This document shows positions 1-6,591 of a stretch of 42,862 nt of DNA, piece after piece. Made by a program: the position numbers and the translations under genes. The DNA is taken from the NCBI GenBank assembly GCA_017617125.1, contig JAFZWY010000042.1, forward strand, positions 1 to 42,862, written 5' to 3'. How positions within the stretch are numbered: the first letter of the stretch is position 1; the number at the start of each line of letters is the position of its first letter. Below the pieces are notes generated by a model. It was not told the DNA's origin. It did not search any database and worked only from the letters and a program-made list of their open reading frames with translations. Origin of the DNA: Bacteroidales bacterium (GTDB taxonomy: Bacteria; Bacteroidota; Bacteroidia; Bacteroidales; ML635J-15).

Positions 1-216
1 CCGAACAACGGTATGTTCAGCATCGACTTCAGCAACATCGAAGGTGATGCAACCTACCAACTCATCGACGCTCGCGGTGCTATCATCGAAACCCGTGACA
101 TCAACGTTGCAAATGGTGAAACAATGACATTCAACCACAACCTCGTTCCTGGCACTTACTTCGTAAGAATCATCAATGCCGACAAGGTTTACGTTGAGCA
201 GATTGTTGTTGAATAA
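1..216 (+). CDS. C-terminal tail of a T9SS-sorted surface protein (5' end outside window)
   Basis: The reading frame is open from base 1 and ends with TAA at 214-216, so only the last 71 residues are visible. They form a type A sorting domain (Por secretion system C-terminal domain): a PNNG start, a Y-x-L-x-D-x-x-G motif (YQLIDARGA), a G-T-Y-F-V-R strand and a final hydrophobic QIVVE. Such tails direct proteins through the outer membrane by T9SS, where they are cleaved and anchored. The tail is almost identical to those ending at 4796 and 6591, so this is the third member of a local family. Its functional domains lie outside the window. A strong terminator follows at 274-311. Confidence 0.9.
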   Translation, partial: PNNGMFSIDFSNIEGDATYQLIDARGAIIETRDINVANGETMTFNHNLVPGTYFVRIINADKVYVEQIVVE

Positions 217-311: not shown

Positions 312-401
312 AGGCAAATAGGCAAGCATGCTTACTTATAGCCAGTCAGCCTGTTAGCCATTCTTTTTTTTACTTTTTTCTATATATTTCCAAAAAAACA
401 T

Positions 402-409
402 TATTTTTG
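402..409 (+). promoter_or_regulatory. Bacteroidota -7 promoter element
   Basis: TATTTTTG fits TAnnTTTG. It lies about 100 bases before the start at 513, leaving a long leader that contains the conserved 471-500 element. A T-rich stretch sits where a -33 element would be, but no clear TTTG is present. Confidence 0.5.
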
Positions 410-470
410 CACAGGCAAAAAATATATATGAGGAAAATATTTTTTTGTCGGGAATATATTGGGATTAGTA

Positions 471-500
471 AAGCCGAAGCCTCCGATGGCATATAACTGG
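471..500 (+). promoter_or_regulatory. Conserved leader element, copy 1
   Basis: This 30-nt stretch (AAGCCGAAG, two variable bases, TCCGATGGCATATAACTGG) recurs at 4993-5022 with only the two central bases changed (CC versus GG). In both places it ends exactly 12 nt before the start codon. It can be drawn as a small pseudoknot: GCC (473-475) with GGC (488-490), and CCG (483-485) with TGG (498-500). It also reads without stops in frame with the gene as KPKxPMAYNW, so an N-terminal extension cannot be excluded. The function is unknown; a cis-acting RNA is inferred from two copies only. Confidence 0.5.
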
Positions 501-512
501 GGGGAATTAAAA

Positions 513-3500
513 ATGAGGAAGCTGATATTAAATATCTTATTGTTGCTTGCAATGGCAATGGGAGCTGTCGCACAGGAAACCTTGACGGTTTACGATGGAG
601 CGGAGACAAATGGCTATGTGCCTGTTTATGGTTTTTACTGCGATGCCTACTTGAAAGCTGAATTTATTATCCCGTCTTCAGACTTGGACGAAATGAACGG
701 TGGAACTATTTCAGGAATGGAGTTCTATTTGAGCTCTCCAGCAGCGGAGGCATGGACAGGTACTTTTCAGGTGTTTTTGAAAGAAGTAGATGCAACTACG
801 CTAAGTGCATATAGTGGCACTGAAAATGCAACTATTGTTTATACAGGAACACTTGATGGTACAGGAAGTACAATGACTGTTGATTTTTCCGAGAATTATG
901 TTTATCGGGGAGGCAATTTGTTGGTTGGTTTTTATCAAACAGCAACGGGAAATTATAAGAGTGTTTCTTTTTTGGGAACAACAGTTGATGGATCTAGCAT
1001 ACAGGGATATTCTTATTCCTCATTGGAAGGCGTGGCACCTAATCAAAGAAACTTTATCCCCAAGACAACTTTTACATACGAAGGATCATGTACAAAGCCT
1101 ACAGAGCTTGCTGTAAGCAATGTGGGTTACACTAGCGCAACACTATCATGGACTGCTGGCGGAGATGAGACTGCTTGGGTTCTAAAGTACGGTGTTTCCG
1201 GTTTTAATGTTGCAACTGAGGGCACGTCTGTCGACCTCACAGAAACAACATATAGCTTAACAGGACTTGCCGATAATACTTCATACGATGTATATGTAAA
1301 ATCTGTCTGCGGTGAAGTCGGTGAAAGCCGTTGGGTAAAGACTACGTTTAGAACTTTAAGTTGTTTAGTTACAACATTCCCATGGATAGAGAATTTTAAT
1401 TCTTATGAATCTGGTAATTTTACAAAGTCATGTTGGGTAAATGAACATATCTCCGGTTCTGGAGATCAGATTTTCAAAGTATCAAGCCATCGGTTGATGT
1501 TGCCCGATATGTCAGTAGGGACTCTTACAAAACTTGTTCTACCTGAAATGGATCTCGGCGGAATTGCACATAAGTTTGTTTTAGATGTGCAGCGCAGCAA
1601 TAGTACATATAACTCATATTATTCTTACGAAGGTATTAGGATTTTTACAAGTGTTGATGGACAAATCGAAGGTGCTACTGAATTGGCTTTTATTCCTCGT
1701 CAATACAATGAAGCAAATGGAGAAATCCCTGCTGAAGCTGAGGTCGGTTGGTATACCTACGAGTTGAGTATTCCTATTTATACTGGTCCATGTTACATTA
1801 TTTTACGAGGGGAAAGCCAGTATTGTACGTCTACCTATATGGATAATTTTAAGGTAATAGATGCCGGACTTTGTGCTAAACCTACCGAATTTACAGTATC
1901 CAATGTGACAGATCGTACTGCTGTTGTTTCGTGGACACCAGGTGCTGACGAAACTTCTTGGCAGATATGTATAAACGATGATGTGGATAATCTGATAGAT
2001 GTAAATACTAATCAGTATGTGTTGAATGGTTTGGACGGGGCAACTTCTTATTCGGTAAAGGTGCGTGCGGTTTGCGGTGGCGAAAATGGCGCAAGTAAGT
2101 GGTCTGAGGCAGTTTCTTTTGAAACTTATGAGAATTTGTGCAAAATACATTTAGAACTTACCGATAGCTATGGCGATAGTTGGAATGGCGCTGCCATTAG
2201 TGTAAAAGATGCTTTAACTAACGAGGAACTGGGAGCTTTTTCAAATACCTCGAATGCAGGGCCAAACGAGGTCCAAACCTATGAACTTCCAGTTATTAAT
2301 GGTGAAGAAATTGTTTTCGAGTGGGTTCCCGGTAGTTATGATAGTGAATGTTCTTATGTCGTATACGGTATAAACGGTGAGGAAATTTTCTCGGGTTCGG
2401 GAGCTATGTCTTCTCCAGTAACTTATAATGTAAGTTGTTCGTACTGTAGAGTTCCTGAAGATTTGCAGTCAAGCGATATTTCGGAAACCACTGCGACTGT
2501 TAGCTGGATAGGCCATAATGAAAGCTATGAGATACGCTATAGAAGAGAACTATCCGACGATCTTTCGCAGGTTTTATTCTCCGAAGGATTTGAAAATGGT
2601 ATTCCTGAAGGATGGACAAATATTGACGCAGACGGTGACGGATACACTTGGAGGGTAGCTGCTGGATTCAGTGGTCATAGTGGAAATAATTGTATTTCTT
2701 CTGCAAGTTACAACTTTTCGGATGGCGGGCTTACTCCCGACAACTGGCTAATAACTCCTGCTGTCGCATTGCCGCAGGGAGTAGAAAACATTAATCTTAA
2801 GTTTTATGCAAATGCTCAAGATTCTGCGTTCGCCGAAGAACACTATGGAGTTTATATTTCGACAACTACGGTTGATACGGCTGCATTCACATTGCTGTGG
2901 GAGGAAAATATGACAGCCGAGGGCGGTTCTCACAGAGGAGATCCTGGCGCATGGGGCGAAAAGAATACCGATCTTACCGCATACGCAGGGCGGACCGTTT
3001 ATATAGCAATTCGCCATTTCAATTGCTATGATATGTTCGACCTAGATATTGACGACATTAGTCTAAGTGTAACATATAGTGATAATTTTTGGACTGTGCT
3101 AACTACAACCGATACTATTGTAGAATTGACCGGATTGATACCTGGAACTACCTACGAATATCAGGTTAACGGAATTTGCGGAAACATTAACGACAACTGG
3201 ACAGAAACAAACACGTTTACTACGGAAGCAGTTTGCCCTACACCTTCATACCTCAACGCGGAAACCACGGTGAATTCTGCAAGTATAACATGGGTGGGAC
3301 TCAACGACAGCTATGTATTGCGTTACAGGGATTCCCGAACCCAGAATTTGTTGTCGGAAAGTTTCGAAAACGGCATTTCCGACGAATGGACTATTGTTGA
3401 TGCCGATGGCGACGGATTCACATGGGGATTGTCGTCGGAGCTGATGTCGGGTTATGTGGCACATAGCGGTGGCGATATGCTCACTTCGCAAAGCTTCGAT

Positions 3501-4796
3501 TTTACGGCAGGTACGCTTACCCCCGACAACTGGCTTATTACTCCTGCTGTTGCATTGCCCGAAAATGCCGAAAGCATCAATTTCAGATTCTATGTTAATG
3601 CACAGGACGTTGCATATCCTAGCGAACATTATGGCGTTTACATTTCAACCACTACTGCCGATCTCGATGCTTTCACATTGCTGTGGGAGGAGGATTTGAA
3701 TGCTGCAGGAGGTTCTCACAGAACCCAGGGAGCATGGGGAGAAAAGAACACCGACCTTACCGCATATGCAGGACAGACGGTATATGTTGCAATACGCCAT
3801 TTCAATAGTTCGAATATGTTCTATTTCAATTTGGATGATATTGCAGTAGTGGCAACAATAGAAACTTTGGATTGGACGGAGGTGACTTATGCCACTTCGC
3901 CTTTTGTGTTGACGGGTTTGCCTTCAAATACTACATATTACTATCAGATTAATGGTATTTGTGGCGGCAACGACGATAATTGGACAGCAGTAAACACATT
4001 CACAACTTTGCCGTATGGCTACACCATCACTGCAACAGCTAGTGAGGGTGGAAGCATTTCTCCAGCAGGTGATGTTATTGTTTACGAAACTACAAGCCAA
4101 TCGTTTACAATTACAGCAAACTCCGACTATCGTTTAACAAGTGTCTTGGTCGACGATACAGAGGCGATTGACCAGCTTGTTGATGGCGTTTACACTTTCA
4201 CAAACGTAAATGCAAACCACACTATTGCAGCAACCTTCGAAGCAATACCTACCTATACTATTACTATTAGTAAAGAGGAATATGGCTCTGTAACTTACAA
4301 TGGTACAGAACTACAAGACAATGAAACTGTTACGGTGCAGGAAGGAGCAACTCCATCATTCGAAATCGTCGGTTATACTACAACAAATGGAGACAGGTAT
4401 ATTATAGGAACACTTACTATTGATGACGAAGAAGTTGAGGTAAGCGGAGAATTCCCCGAAAACCAATCTTTCACATATACATTCGAGCCTGTAAATGCAA
4501 ACCACACTCTTGCTGTAACATTCGTCTTTGTAAGTTCGGTTAATATGTCCAAAGCTGGGTCTATGGTAGTTTATCCGAATCCCAACAATGGTACTTTCAG
4601 CATCGACTGCAGCAATATCGAAGGAGATGCAACCTACCAGCTCATCGACGCTCGCGGTGCTATGGTTGAAACTCGCGACATCAACGTAGCAAATGGCGAA
4701 ACAATGATATTTAACCATAACCTTAATGCCGGAACTTACTTTGTAAGGATTATCAGCGGCGGTAAGATTTATATAGAACAGATTGTTGTTGAATAA
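513..4796 (+). CDS. Large T9SS-secreted adhesin-like protein with FN3 and cleaved-adhesin domains
   Basis: The protein has 1427 residues from the ATG at 513, chosen because a signal peptide starts there (MRK, then LILNILLLLAMAMG, cleavage after AVA). Approximate order: an N-terminal beta domain (25-190), FN3 (193-281), a MAM/choice-of-anchor-like jelly roll (285-451), FN3 (453-542), a Cys-bounded beta domain (542-645), then two large units (645-907 and 908-1167). In each of these units a cleaved-adhesin/choice-of-anchor J domain (SFENG, DADGDGxTW, DNWLITPAV, AIRHFN) sits inside an FN3 domain. Two InlB-type repeats (1169-1338) and a type A sorting domain (about 1350-1427) follow. The adhesin domain resembles those of Porphyromonas gingipains and hemagglutinins. 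No catalytic motif is seen. The likely role is surface attachment or glycan/protein binding. An in-frame TTG start at 459 would place the signal peptide internally. Confidence 0.85.
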   Translation: MRKLILNILLLLAMAMGAVAQETLTVYDGAETNGYVPVYGFYCDAYLKAEFIIPSSDLDEMNGGTISGMEFYLSSPAAEAWTGTFQVFLKEVDATTLSAYSGTENATIVYTGTLDGTGSTMTVDFSENYVYRGGNLLVGFYQTATGNYKSVSFLGTTVDGSSIQGYSYSSLEGVAPNQRNFIPKTTFTYEGSCTKPTELAVSNVGYTSATLSWTAGGDETAWVLKYGVSGFNVATEGTSVDLTETTYSLTGLADNTSYDVYVKSVCGEVGESRWVKTTFRTLSCLVTTFPWIENFNSYESGNFTKSCWVNEHISGSGDQIFKVSSHRLMLPDMSVGTLTKLVLPEMDLGGIAHKFVLDVQRSNSTYNSYYSYEGIRIFTSVDGQIEGATELAFIPRQYNEANGEIPAEAEVGWYTYELSIPIYTGPCYIILRGESQYCTSTYMDNFKVIDAGLCAKPTEFTVSNVTDRTAVVSWTPGADETSWQICINDDVDNLIDVNTNQYVLNGLDGATSYSVKVRAVCGGENGASKWSEAVSFETYENLCKIHLELTDSYGDSWNGAAISVKDALTNEELGAFSNTSNAGPNEVQTYELPVINGEEIVFEWVPGSYDSECSYVVYGINGEEIFSGSGAMSSPVTYNVSCSYCRVPEDLQSSDISETTATVSWIGHNESYEIRYRRELSDDLSQVLFSEGFENGIPEGWTNIDADGDGYTWRVAAGFSGHSGNNCISSASYNFSDGGLTPDNWLITPAVALPQGVENINLKFYANAQDSAFAEEHYGVYISTTTVDTAAFTLLWEENMTAEGGSHRGDPGAWGEKNTDLTAYAGRTVYIAIRHFNCYDMFDLDIDDISLSVTYSDNFWTVLTTTDTIVELTGLIPGTTYEYQVNGICGNINDNWTETNTFTTEAVCPTPSYLNAETTVNSASITWVGLNDSYVLRYRDSRTQNLLSESFENGISDEWTIVDADGDGFTWGLSSELMSGYVAHSGGDMLTSQSFDFTAGTLTPDNWLITPAVALPENAESINFRFYVNAQDVAYPSEHYGVYISTTTADLDAFTLLWEEDLNAAGGSHRTQGAWGEKNTDLTAYAGQTVYVAIRHFNSSNMFYFNLDDIAVVATIETLDWTEVTYATSPFVLTGLPSNTTYYYQINGICGGNDDNWTAVNTFTTLPYGYTITATASEGGSISPAGDVIVYETTSQSFTITANSDYRLTSVLVDDTEAIDQLVDGVYTFTNVNANHTIAATFEAIPTYTITISKEEYGSVTYNGTELQDNETVTVQEGATPSFEIVGYTTTNGDRYIIGTLTIDDEEVEVSGEFPENQSFTYTFEPVNANHTLAVTFVFVSSVNMSKAGSMVVYPNPNNGTFSIDCSNIEGDATYQLIDARGAMVETRDINVANGETMIFNHNLNAGTYFVRIISGGKIYIEQIVVE

Positions 4797-4821
4797 ATAA
4801 TAGTTGATTCATCCAAAGAGC

Positions 4822-4854
4822 AAAGACTGTCAGTATGGGCAGTCTTTCTTTTTG
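4822..4854 (+). terminator. Rho-independent terminator
   Basis: AAAGACTG (4822-4829) pairs with CAGTCTTT (4840-4847), followed by a T-rich tail. Confidence 0.75.
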
Positions 4855-4942
4855 TGAAAATAGCTAACTATGTCAGGTTGTGGGACTTTTGGATTGTATA
4901 TTTTTATTTGTGAATAGTGCTGTTTGCAAGCAAAAAAATATT

Positions 4943-4950
4943 TATCTTTG
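4943..4950 (+). promoter_or_regulatory. Bacteroidota -7 promoter element
   Basis: TATCTTTG is an excellent TAnnTTTG match about 85 bases before the start at 5035. A TTTG lies at 4923-4926, a short 16 bases upstream, as a possible -33 element. Confidence 0.65.
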
Positions 4951-4992
4951 CAATCAAATTTAAAATGAATTTTAAGGCGAATATTGTATTTT

Positions 4993-5022
4993 AAGCCGAA
5001 GGGTCCGATGGCATATAACTGG
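4993..5022 (+). promoter_or_regulatory. Conserved leader element, copy 2
   Basis: Second copy of the 471-500 element, with 28 of 30 bases identical and the same 12-nt gap to the ATG (5035). The signal-peptide coding regions just downstream have diverged far more, so the leader is better conserved than the start of the genes it precedes. The two changed bases lie in a predicted loop and would alter the amino acid in each of the three frames. Confidence 0.5.
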
Positions 5023-5034
5023 ATGATTGTTAAT

Positions 5035-6591
5035 ATGAAGAAAATATTTTTTAATGTGCTTGTGTTGTTATCACTGATTTGCCTTCCGGTAGTCATGAGT
5101 GCTCATACAATAGTAGCAAGTGCAGGCGAACACGGTACTATTTCTCCGAGCGGAGATGTAGAAGTAACCGATGGAGAGACCCAGGCGTTCACAATTACTC
5201 CCGAAGGTGGCTACCAGATTGCAAGCGTAATTGTTGATGCTGCTAATGTTACCGAAAATATTGTCGCTGGCGACGGCGTATTCTTCTACACATTCGAAAA
5301 TGTAACAGCAGACCACACAATTGACGTAACATTCGAAGAAATACCTACCTATCTAATAACAGTAGTAGTAGGTGAAAATGGTAACGTTTATTATAACGAT
5401 GCATTGGCATCCGAGCATGTCGCAGTATATGAAGGCGATACTCCAGAATTTGTAATCACACCTGCTACAAATTATCAGATAGCAACTCTCACAGTAGATG
5501 AAAATGCAATCTCTCTTACGCCGGTGCAGTTGGGCGGTTATACATACACATTCGAGCCTGTTACGGCAGCTCATACTCTTTCAGTAACGTTTGAACTTAT
5601 ACCAGTTACCCATACAATAGTAGCAAGCGCAGGCGAAAACGGAACTATCTCACCGGACGGTAATGTGACAGTAACCGATGGCGAAGATCAGCAGTTCCAG
5701 ATTTCGGCAACCAGCGGCTACCGCATTGCAAGTGTCCTTGTCGATGGCGTTGAAGCAATCGACGACCTTGAAAACGACGTATACACTTTCACAAACGTAA
5801 CAGCTGACCACACAATTGCTGCAACTTTCGAGGAAATTCCTGCTGTTACTTATACAATTACAGCAACCGTATTAGGCGGACACGGAACAGTAGATCCCGA
5901 CGGAGAAATCACTGTCAACGCAGGTTCCAGCTATGATGTTACTTTTATTCCAGACGAAGGATACGCCTTGGATACTGTAAAAGTAAACGGCATTGTTAGA
6001 TATCCGGTTGAAGGAACTGGCTACATAACCAATAATGTGTATCCGCTTACCAATATTTCGGAAAATTACACAATAACTGTCAGGTACAAAGATATAAGGA
6101 CTTACTACCATATCCATGTTGATATTGAAACAGCAGGTGGAACCGTTTCTCCTGCCGATACTTCGGTTATAGAAGGAACCGATGTTACCCTTGTCGTAAC
6201 ACCTAACGAAGGATTCCATGTTTCGCAGTTCACAATTGATGGAAATACAATAACCAATAGCCAGATCAGCGAGATTACTTTTGAAAATGTACAGACCGAC
6301 CATGAAATAAAGATTTCGTTCATGACAAATTCGATCGACGAAGAATCTCTTTCGGTAATGGGTATCTACCCGAACCCGAACAACGGTATGTTCAGCATCG
6401 ACTTCAGCAACATCGAAGGTGATGCAACCTACCAGCTCATCGACGCTCGCGGTGCAGTTGTTGAAACTCGCGATATCAACGTTGCAAATGGAGAAACAAT
6501 GAATTTCAACCACAACCTCAATGCTGGTACTTACTTTGTAAGAATCATAAATGCTGACAAGGTTTATGTTGGTCAGATTGTAGTTGAATAA
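5035..6591 (+). CDS. T9SS-secreted protein made of InlB-type bacterial repeats
   Basis: The protein has 518 residues from the ATG at 5035, chosen because a signal peptide begins there (MKKIFFNVLVLLSLICLP, cleavage near VMSA). Five consecutive beta-repeat units follow at about 24-102, 105-190, 192-270, 273-352 and 356-431. Each has the pattern G-G/H-G-T-I/V-x-P-x-G, a central Y-x-I-x-x-V-x-V-D and a closing YTFENVTADHTIxVTFE. These belong to the divergent InlB B-repeat / bacterial repeat class. A type A sorting domain closes the protein (about 434-518). Repeats 1 and 3 share HTIVASAGExGTISPxG, pointing to internal duplication. No enzyme domain is visible; a surface stalk or adhesin role is inferred. 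The same repeat type occurs in the neighbour at residues 1169-1338. Confidence 0.85.
   Translation: MKKIFFNVLVLLSLICLPVVMSAHTIVASAGEHGTISPSGDVEVTDGETQAFTITPEGGYQIASVIVDAANVTENIVAGDGVFFYTFENVTADHTIDVTFEEIPTYLITVVVGENGNVYYNDALASEHVAVYEGDTPEFVITPATNYQIATLTVDENAISLTPVQLGGYTYTFEPVTAAHTLSVTFELIPVTHTIVASAGENGTISPDGNVTVTDGEDQQFQISATSGYRIASVLVDGVEAIDDLENDVYTFTNVTADHTIAATFEEIPAVTYTITATVLGGHGTVDPDGEITVNAGSSYDVTFIPDEGYALDTVKVNGIVRYPVEGTGYITNNVYPLTNISENYTITVRYKDIRTYYHIHVDIETAGGTVSPADTSVIEGTDVTLVVTPNEGFHVSQFTIDGNTITNSQISEITFENVQTDHEIKISFMTNSIDEESLSVMGIYPNPNNGMFSIDFSNIEGDATYQLIDARGAVVETRDINVANGETMNFNHNLNAGTYFVRIINADKVYVGQIVVE

What the first reader, a model, noticed from the sequence alone, without database searches (positions are those of the whole stretch)
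471..5022. Shared 30-nt leader at a fixed distance from the start of two T9SS genes
471-500 and 4993-5022 agree in 28 of 30 bases and both end exactly 12 nt before the ATG, while the flanking leader and the signal-peptide codons have diverged. The only two differences change the residue in all three frames, which argues for an RNA or DNA element. A small H-type pseudoknot is possible (GCC/GGC with CCG/TGG). Alternatives are a conserved N-terminal KPKxPMAYNW extension or a recombination site used for cassette exchange between surface genes.
Basis: partly seen in the sequence, partly recalled or inferred. Interest (0 to 1): 0.7.

Follow-up and report, generated by a model that had tools for sequence, protein, structure and literature searches.

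The report
RNA pseudoknot before envelope-protein genes
A leader element of about 40 bases, predicted from matched base changes to fold into an RNA pseudoknot, sits 12-18 bases before the start codon of 36 families of genes, most of them predicted to encode secreted or membrane proteins, in Bacteroidales bacteria and also in a few viral contigs, and it likely works as a switch on their translation.

Summary
The two 30-mers (28 of 30 identical, both 12 nt before ATG) belong to a family with 11 copies in this genome. I catalogued 116 distinct bacterial copies, from 15 of 26 genomes of the genus and 12 genomes in 8 other Bacteroidales families, plus 15 viral contigs. The five strongest covarying column pairs of 903 are four pairs of one helix and one pair of the other helix of an H-type pseudoknot. 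The S2 core occurs in 16 complementary forms; 91 of 103 sequences have all three core pairs. Loop bases are nearly invariant. The start codon follows 14 or 15 nt after AUAUAAC in 91 of 111 (range 12-18). The genes are not only T9SS cargo: 105 of 111 products begin with a signal-peptide-like or membrane segment, in 32 of 36 families. Coding and recombination readings fail; no Rfam family matches. Best reading: a cis-acting RNA switch, likely blocking ribosome loading when folded and sensing a cell-supplied ligand or protein. Ligand, direction and the fold itself are untested.

The parts
402..409 (+). predicted -7 promoter box TATTTTTG of gene 1
   Evidence: consensus TAnnTTTG; such a box lies within 150 nt upstream in 57 of 80 elements, against a mean of 9.8 (maximum 18) in 200 shuffles; position
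473..476 (+). copy 1, S1 5' strand (GCCG), pairs with 487-490
477..480 (+). copy 1, loop L1 (GA-N-G type; A and G nearly invariant in the family)
   Evidence: column counts
481..485 (+). copy 1, S2 5' strand (CTCCG), pairs with 498-502
487..490 (+). copy 1, S1 3' strand (TGGC)
491..497 (+). copy 1, loop L3 AUAUAAC, nearly invariant in the family
   Evidence: of 103 rows, 5 of 7 columns invariant, the others 102 and 101
498..502 (+). copy 1, S2 3' strand (TGGGG), positions -15 to -11 from ATG 513
513..4796 (+). gene 1: T9SS cargo with Cleaved_Adhesin, fn3 and Por_Secre_tail domains
4943..4950 (+). predicted -7 promoter box TATCTTTG of gene 2
4995..4998 (+). copy 2, S1 5' strand (GCCG), pairs with 5009-5012
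5003..5007 (+). copy 2, S2 5' strand (GTCCG), pairs with 5020-5024
5009..5012 (+). copy 2, S1 3' strand (TGGC)
5013..5019 (+). copy 2, loop L3 AUAUAAC
5020..5024 (+). copy 2, S2 3' strand (TGGAT), positions -15 to -11 from ATG 5035
5035..6591 (+). gene 2: T9SS cargo with Flg_new_2 (InlB B-repeat type) and Por_Secre_tail domains

Best explanation
The element is a cis-acting leader RNA, predicted to fold into a small H-type pseudoknot, that likely controls translation initiation of the gene behind it. Shown by sequence comparison: two interleaved helices (S1 RCCG/UGGN, nearly invariant except for its outer pair; S2 of 4-5 bp with many compensatory changes), nearly invariant loops (GA-N-G and AUAUAAC), a near-fixed distance to the start codon, and use before many unrelated genes. 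Inferred: when folded, S2 holds nucleotides of about -15 to -10, where the 30S subunit lands, so that folding would block initiation; and the invariant loops would be the recognition surface for a small ligand or a protein supplied by the cell, since the downstream products share no homology (so this is not feedback by the product) and viral contigs carry the same RNA. The outcome would be a common switch for a set of envelope proteins, adhesin-like T9SS cargo and lipoproteins among them.
For: Unsupervised mutual information on 103 distinct rows: ranks 1-5 of 903 column pairs are four S2 pairs and S1 pair 7-26; on the MAFFT alignment made without structure (59 rows) ranks 1-4 are three S2 pairs and that S1 pair. 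S2 pair 17-36: five standard pair types, 0 unpaired of 59; covariation score 0.369 against 0.152 in shuffles (0 of 500 as high) and at most 0.119 when slid. A pattern that says nothing about S2, over 393 genomes (22 match; reversed control 4), gives 18 inspected places outside the genus: 10 have S2 (4 of 4 pairs in 7, 3 of 4 in 3), a start codon 12-16 nt on and a signal-like N-terminus; the other 8 have at most 3 of 4 pairs and no gene start there. Viral S2 forms GTGC/GCAC, CTGC/GCAG and GCCC/GGGC. Spacing from AAC to ATG 14 or 15 nt in 91 of 111, while the distance to the nearest promoter box ranges 9-66 nt (57 of 80 have a box). Products: 105 of 111 signal- or anchor-like, 32 of 36 families; background 62 of 154 under a laxer rule. 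In F. johnsoniae -20 to +20 is kept less paired and bS1 domain 4 is placed near -12 to -15 (PMC6847099, passages).
Against: No experiment. 12 of 103 rows lack one core S2 pair; the outer S1 pair is an A-G mismatch in 51 of 103 and the inner S1 pairs hardly vary, so S1 rests mainly on one column pair. Ordinary (nested) folding does not show the start region to be unusually open: unpaired probability 0.50 against 0.47 in shuffles, 111 leaders. Pseudoknot energy was not computed. 37 of 111 catalogued genes are one paralogous family. 6 of 111 products, and the viral ones, do not look exported. Whether folding represses or activates is not shown, nor that anything binds.
Confidence: 0.6

Rival explanations
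1. A constitutive translation tuner: the pseudoknot lowers or times initiation of exported proteins by a fixed amount and senses nothing.
For: Strong link to signal-peptide and lipoprotein genes (105 of 111) and near-fixed distance to ATG fit a general requirement of such mRNAs; no ligand is known.
Against: Only a few genes per genome carry it: 7 of 107 T9SS tail matches in this genome (by place), 1-3 copies in other families. Loops are more conserved than the S2 letters, which a mere roadblock would not need; viral amidotransferase-like genes carry it too.
Confidence: 0.22
2. An mRNA-stability or 5'-end protection element.
For: It lies near the predicted 5' end in many leaders (nearest box 9-66 nt away in 57 of 80).
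Against: Position is near-fixed to the start codon, not to the promoter; 23 of 80 have no such box, and some follow another gene directly (for example L100:1600).
Confidence: 0.08
3. A leader peptide: the ATG inside the element (ATG GNA TAT AAC) starts a short ORF or an N-terminal extension.
For: The in-element ATG is present in 108 of 111; in 57 of 111 its frame runs to the main ATG with the offset that can give an ATGA overlap.
Against: Third codon positions are fixed (A 103, C 103, T 101 of 103) while a second position varies freely (G54, C29, T18, A2); the frame to the main ORF is in-frame in 36, off by one in 15, and 3 lack the ATG. Single-base indels in L1 and S2 shift the longer KPKxPMAYNW frame.
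Confidence: 0.04
4. A DNA site: recombination junction for cassette exchange between surface genes, or a protein operator on DNA.
For: Several T9SS copies in this genome lie in pairs on one contig (C12, C31, C55) and resemble each other in signal and tail sequence.
Against: Two-sided compensatory changes with G-U pairs in S2; unrelated genes behind it; near-fixed spacing to ATG.
Confidence: 0.03

Closest known systems
preQ1 class I riboswitches (H-type, about 35 nt)
   Same: Small H-type pseudoknot with an A-rich third loop at the ribosome-binding region; translational versions occlude the ribosome site (PMC11625349, passages)
   Different: No Rfam match; the conserved loop letters differ (recalled); no queuosine gene among the downstream proteins scanned; here the loop between S2 5' strand and S1 3' strand is only 1-2 nt
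SAM-II and SAM-V riboswitches
   Same: SAM-V is an H-type pseudoknot that controls translation (PMC6061858, start of abstract in listing)
   Different: No Rfam match; no methionine or SAM gene among the downstream proteins scanned
T4 gene 32 and ribosomal S15 leader pseudoknots (autogenous operators)
   Same: Pseudoknot in the leader that lets a protein block initiation (PMC535899 and PMC5100602, start of abstracts in listing; details recalled)
   Different: Those sit before the gene of their own repressor; here 36 unrelated families share one RNA, so the binder is not the product
Cyclic-dinucleotide riboswitches (recalled)
   Same: One RNA class before many different surface-protein genes
   Different: Much smaller, no Rfam match, ligand unknown

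Membership tests
Leader pseudoknot regulatory RNA (general kind) | Two interleaved helices supported by compensatory change | tested here: met
   S2 strongly, S1 by one covarying pair plus near-invariant pairs
Leader pseudoknot regulatory RNA (general kind) | Fixed place relative to the start codon | tested here: met
   12-18 nt, 14 or 15 in 91 of 111
Riboswitch | Direct binding of a metabolite or ion | not testable with these tools
   no binding assay
Riboswitch | Downstream gene expression changes with the ligand | not testable with these tools
   no expression data
preQ1-I riboswitch | Match to the Rfam model | tested here: not met
   no such match up to E 5 in window 400-560 and L097 840-960
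preQ1-I riboswitch | Queuosine-pathway genes downstream | tested here: not met
   none in Pfam or NCBIfam scans of the downstream proteins examined
SAM-II / SAM-V riboswitch | Match to the Rfam model | tested here: not met
Autogenous protein operator (T4 gene 32, S15) | RNA lies before the gene of its own repressor | tested here: not met
   36 unrelated downstream families
Leader peptide | Synonymous variation in a conserved reading frame | tested here: not met
   column and frame counts

The most novel reading that the evidence does not exclude
A new class of riboswitch, among the smallest known: a pseudoknot aptamer of about 40 nt in Bacteroidales that reads one intracellular signal and co-ordinately gates translation of part of the envelope proteome (adhesins, lipoproteins, T9SS cargo), and that their phages have borrowed to put an amidotransferase-like gene under the same host signal.
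Probability: 0.42. Interest if true: 0.9.

Novelty: new variant of a known kind. Interest (0 to 1): 0.76.

Why it matters
Bacteroidetes naturally lack Shine-Dalgarno sequences (PMC6847099, abstract), and how they switch translation of single genes is little known (recalled). This element offers a compact candidate switch with dozens of natural variants, tied to what these bacteria display or secrete. Its ligand would name a signal that shapes the surface of gut Bacteroidales. Its presence in viral contigs would point to a host signal that phages also read.

Tried and rejected
Local hairpin CC-GAN-GG in place of S1: no covariation. CsrA-type GGA site (motif recalled): GGA is not conserved as sequence, only as a pairing partner (L015, L029). 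In-element ATG as a uORF. Outside the order: 395 genomes drawn from the class and 296 from the phylum (both samples include the window's genome and some of its order) gave 3 and 1 weak hits besides the window's genome, all without AUAUAAC, judged chance. Own-genome specificity: 160 kb from elsewhere gave one partial hit, E 0.08. Nested folding of the start region: no difference from shuffles worth naming; the pseudoknot-energy routine was absent there. Literature: in the listings I saw no paper that describes the element; passages of PMC2864571, PMC11109978 and PMC8632094 name no such motif; the 2017 survey of 224 candidate RNAs is not held, so it is excluded only as far as Rfam holds its families.

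Rows dropped before counts; 128 matches after removing L080 (looks coding); 116 distinct; L232 and L251 set aside for a variant core; L212, L226 and L250 had no ATG frame of 30 codons; 111 left; 22 of 393 genomes hit; 5 outside the genus (G026, G071, G214, G324, G408; E above 2e-4) judged chance; 17 of 26 genomes of the genus hit at E 0.05; G019 and G024 judged chance; 17 of 73 viral matches had S2 and ATG; L269 and L314 judged chance. L274 judged chance.

Full report
Observation. The two 30-mers are present as described: 28 of 30 identical, each ending 12 nt before an ATG, with diverged flanks (12 of 40 upstream, 4 of 12 in the spacer, 30 of 60 in the first codons); the two changed bases alter the residue in every frame. 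100 shuffled windows give no match. In the rest of the genome the full pattern has 5 more matches within 3 mismatches, a shorter core gives 8 in all, and the structure model 11.

How the family was built. 33 sequences from 13 genomes of the genus (A1) gave a sequence-only model R1. It found a second, diverged class (AAACCGACGGGCCGATGGGATATAAC-NGGC) before short lipoprotein-like genes, in places two or three within a few kilobases. 59 sequences aligned by MAFFT without any structure (A2) gave R2; 89 matches, 75 distinct (A3), gave R3. The catalogue comes from R3 over held loci. An exact-pattern scan of named genome contigs returned 23 stretches, all titled as Bacteroidales or Bacteroidia MAGs, several with rumen, reticulum, omasum or red-deer isolate names.

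Structure. On A2 the pseudoknot has a covariation score of 0.369 (shuffles 0.152, none of 500 as high; slid versions at most 0.119); S2 pair 17-36 shows five standard types and no exception in 59 rows. On A4 (103 distinct rows, aligned by a model that knew S2 but not S1) the five strongest of 903 column pairs by APC-corrected mutual information are S2 17-37, 19-35, 18-36, S1 7-26 and S2 16-38. On A2, which knew no structure, ranks 1-4 are S2 17-36, S1 7-25, S2 19-34, S2 18-35; S2 16-37 is sixth. 91 of 103 rows form all three core S2 pairs, in 16 complementary forms; 12 rows lack one of them. The inner S1 pairs hardly vary; the one change of the G-U pair, to G-C in L129, keeps it; the outer S1 pair is G-C or G-U in 35, A-U in 11 and an A-G mismatch in 51 of 103. 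Nearly invariant: CCGA, G after one free base, A-UGG, AUAUAAC.

In the window, copy 1 pairs 473-476 with 487-490 and 481-485 with 498-502; copy 2 pairs 4995-4998 with 5009-5012 and 5003-5007 with 5020-5024. The base difference at 481 versus 5003 (C versus G) is met by 502 versus 5024 (G versus T): C-G against G-U.

Tests that did not use S2. The pattern CCGANGN{2,10}ATGGNATATAAC says nothing about S2. Over 393 genomes of the order it matched 22; the reversed pattern matched 4. Of 18 inspected places outside the genus, 10 have a start codon 12-16 nt after AAC and a signal-like N-terminus, with S2 complementary at 4 of 4 (7 places) or 3 of 4 (3 places); the other 8 have at most 3 of 4 pairs and no gene start there, apart from a 6-codon frame in L553. 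Of 73 viral matches, 17 have both a 4-bp S2 in one of six registers and an ATG 12-16 nt on. I count 15 as real: 12 contigs with GTGC/GCAC, 2 with CTGC/GCAG, 1 with GCCC/GGGC. Looser patterns give 2 of 213.

Distribution. 15 of 26 genomes of the genus and 12 genomes in 8 other families of the order among 393 sampled, with 1-3 copies each. Nothing credible in the samples of the class (395) and the phylum (296) outside the order.

Position. Spacing from AAC to ATG: 12 nt in 3, 13 in 8, 14 in 57, 15 in 34, 16 in 8, 18 in 1 of 111. A TAnnTTTG box lies within 150 nt upstream in 57 of 80 (200 shuffles: mean 9.8, maximum 18), the nearest 9-66 nt from the element. So the element is tied to the start codon rather than to the promoter.

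Genes. 105 of 111 products have a signal-peptide-like or membrane-anchor N-terminus by a simple hydrophobicity rule; compared by BLAST without the first 24 residues they form 36 families, 32 of which contain such products. Background: 62 of 154 ORFs of the same genome under a laxer rule. The largest family (37 copies) holds the T9SS cargo. In this genome 107 T9SS-tail matches exceed the cut-off; 7 of them end element-bearing genes, judged by place and frame length, and an eighth element-bearing gene (C55:23796) runs towards the contig end. Products that do not look exported: L079 (255 aa, weak bacterial-gasdermin match, E 0.011), L208 (79 aa, Cys-rich), L230 (50 aa), L237 (308 aa), L235 and L238 (37 aa). 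Viral products: a class-II-amidotransferase-like protein in two lineages that are 37% identical (GATase_6 E 4.5e-5 for L304, below the curated cut-off, and no Pfam match for L254; best phage relative annotated as putative glutamine amidotransferase, 33% identity), and an unknown protein (L253; no match).

Mechanism. The second strand of S2 lies at about -15 to -10. In F. johnsoniae -20 to +20 has a lower propensity for pairing, adenines at -3, -6, -12 and -13 are discussed as determinants, and bS1 domain 4 is placed to meet -12 to -15 (PMC6847099, passages). A folded S2 would sit there. Short helices with nearly invariant loops suggest a binder. The binder is not the downstream product, since the products are unrelated, and it would have to be available to phage genes. 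These last steps are inference; nested folding gives no independent support.

Comparison. In topology it resembles preQ1-I and SAM-V riboswitches and autogenous leader pseudoknots, but no Rfam family matches and its gene context fits none of them. I call it a new class of a known kind, in a context (envelope proteins, viral contigs) that the searches listed under Tried and rejected did not turn up.

Noticed in passing
L254:6619-7548, L304:4998-5807, L311, L253:129-918 (viral contigs): The element stands before a class-II-amidotransferase-like gene in two viral lineages and before an unknown gene in a third; L304 and L311 have a Bacteroidetes-type TATCTTTG or TATATTTG box just upstream.
   Followed up: partly
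L197:3048-5874 (G008): A 255-aa protein with a weak bacterial-gasdermin match (PADLOC, E 0.011) behind the element, followed by a Sel1-repeat protein with a signal-like start; possibly a gasdermin defence locus.
   Followed up: partly
L199:857-2826, L097, L098, L102, L110: Clusters of small, mostly lipoprotein-like genes in which two or three successive genes each have their own copy of the element.
   Followed up: partly
L004, L018, L020, L024, L033, L040, upstream of the element: Several T9SS-type leaders seem to have a second inverted repeat directly after the predicted transcription start (for example GCCC...GGGC in L018), followed by GTTGA; not tested.
   Followed up: no
L254 group, just upstream of the element; L203:1501-1560: ATATAACCGA occurs once more directly before the viral element, and as a tandem repeat (ATATAACCGACGA) before another gene in L203; meaning unknown.
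   Followed up: no
L208:1501-1800 (G013): A 79-aa Cys-rich peptide (CGGGCSCPC...CGCNCTCGCNC) behind the element, possibly a modified-peptide precursor.
   Followed up: no
window 1-216, 4560-4796, 6360-6591: The C-terminal T9SS tails of three neighbouring genes are very similar in DNA, which suggests recent duplication or gene conversion.
   Followed up: no
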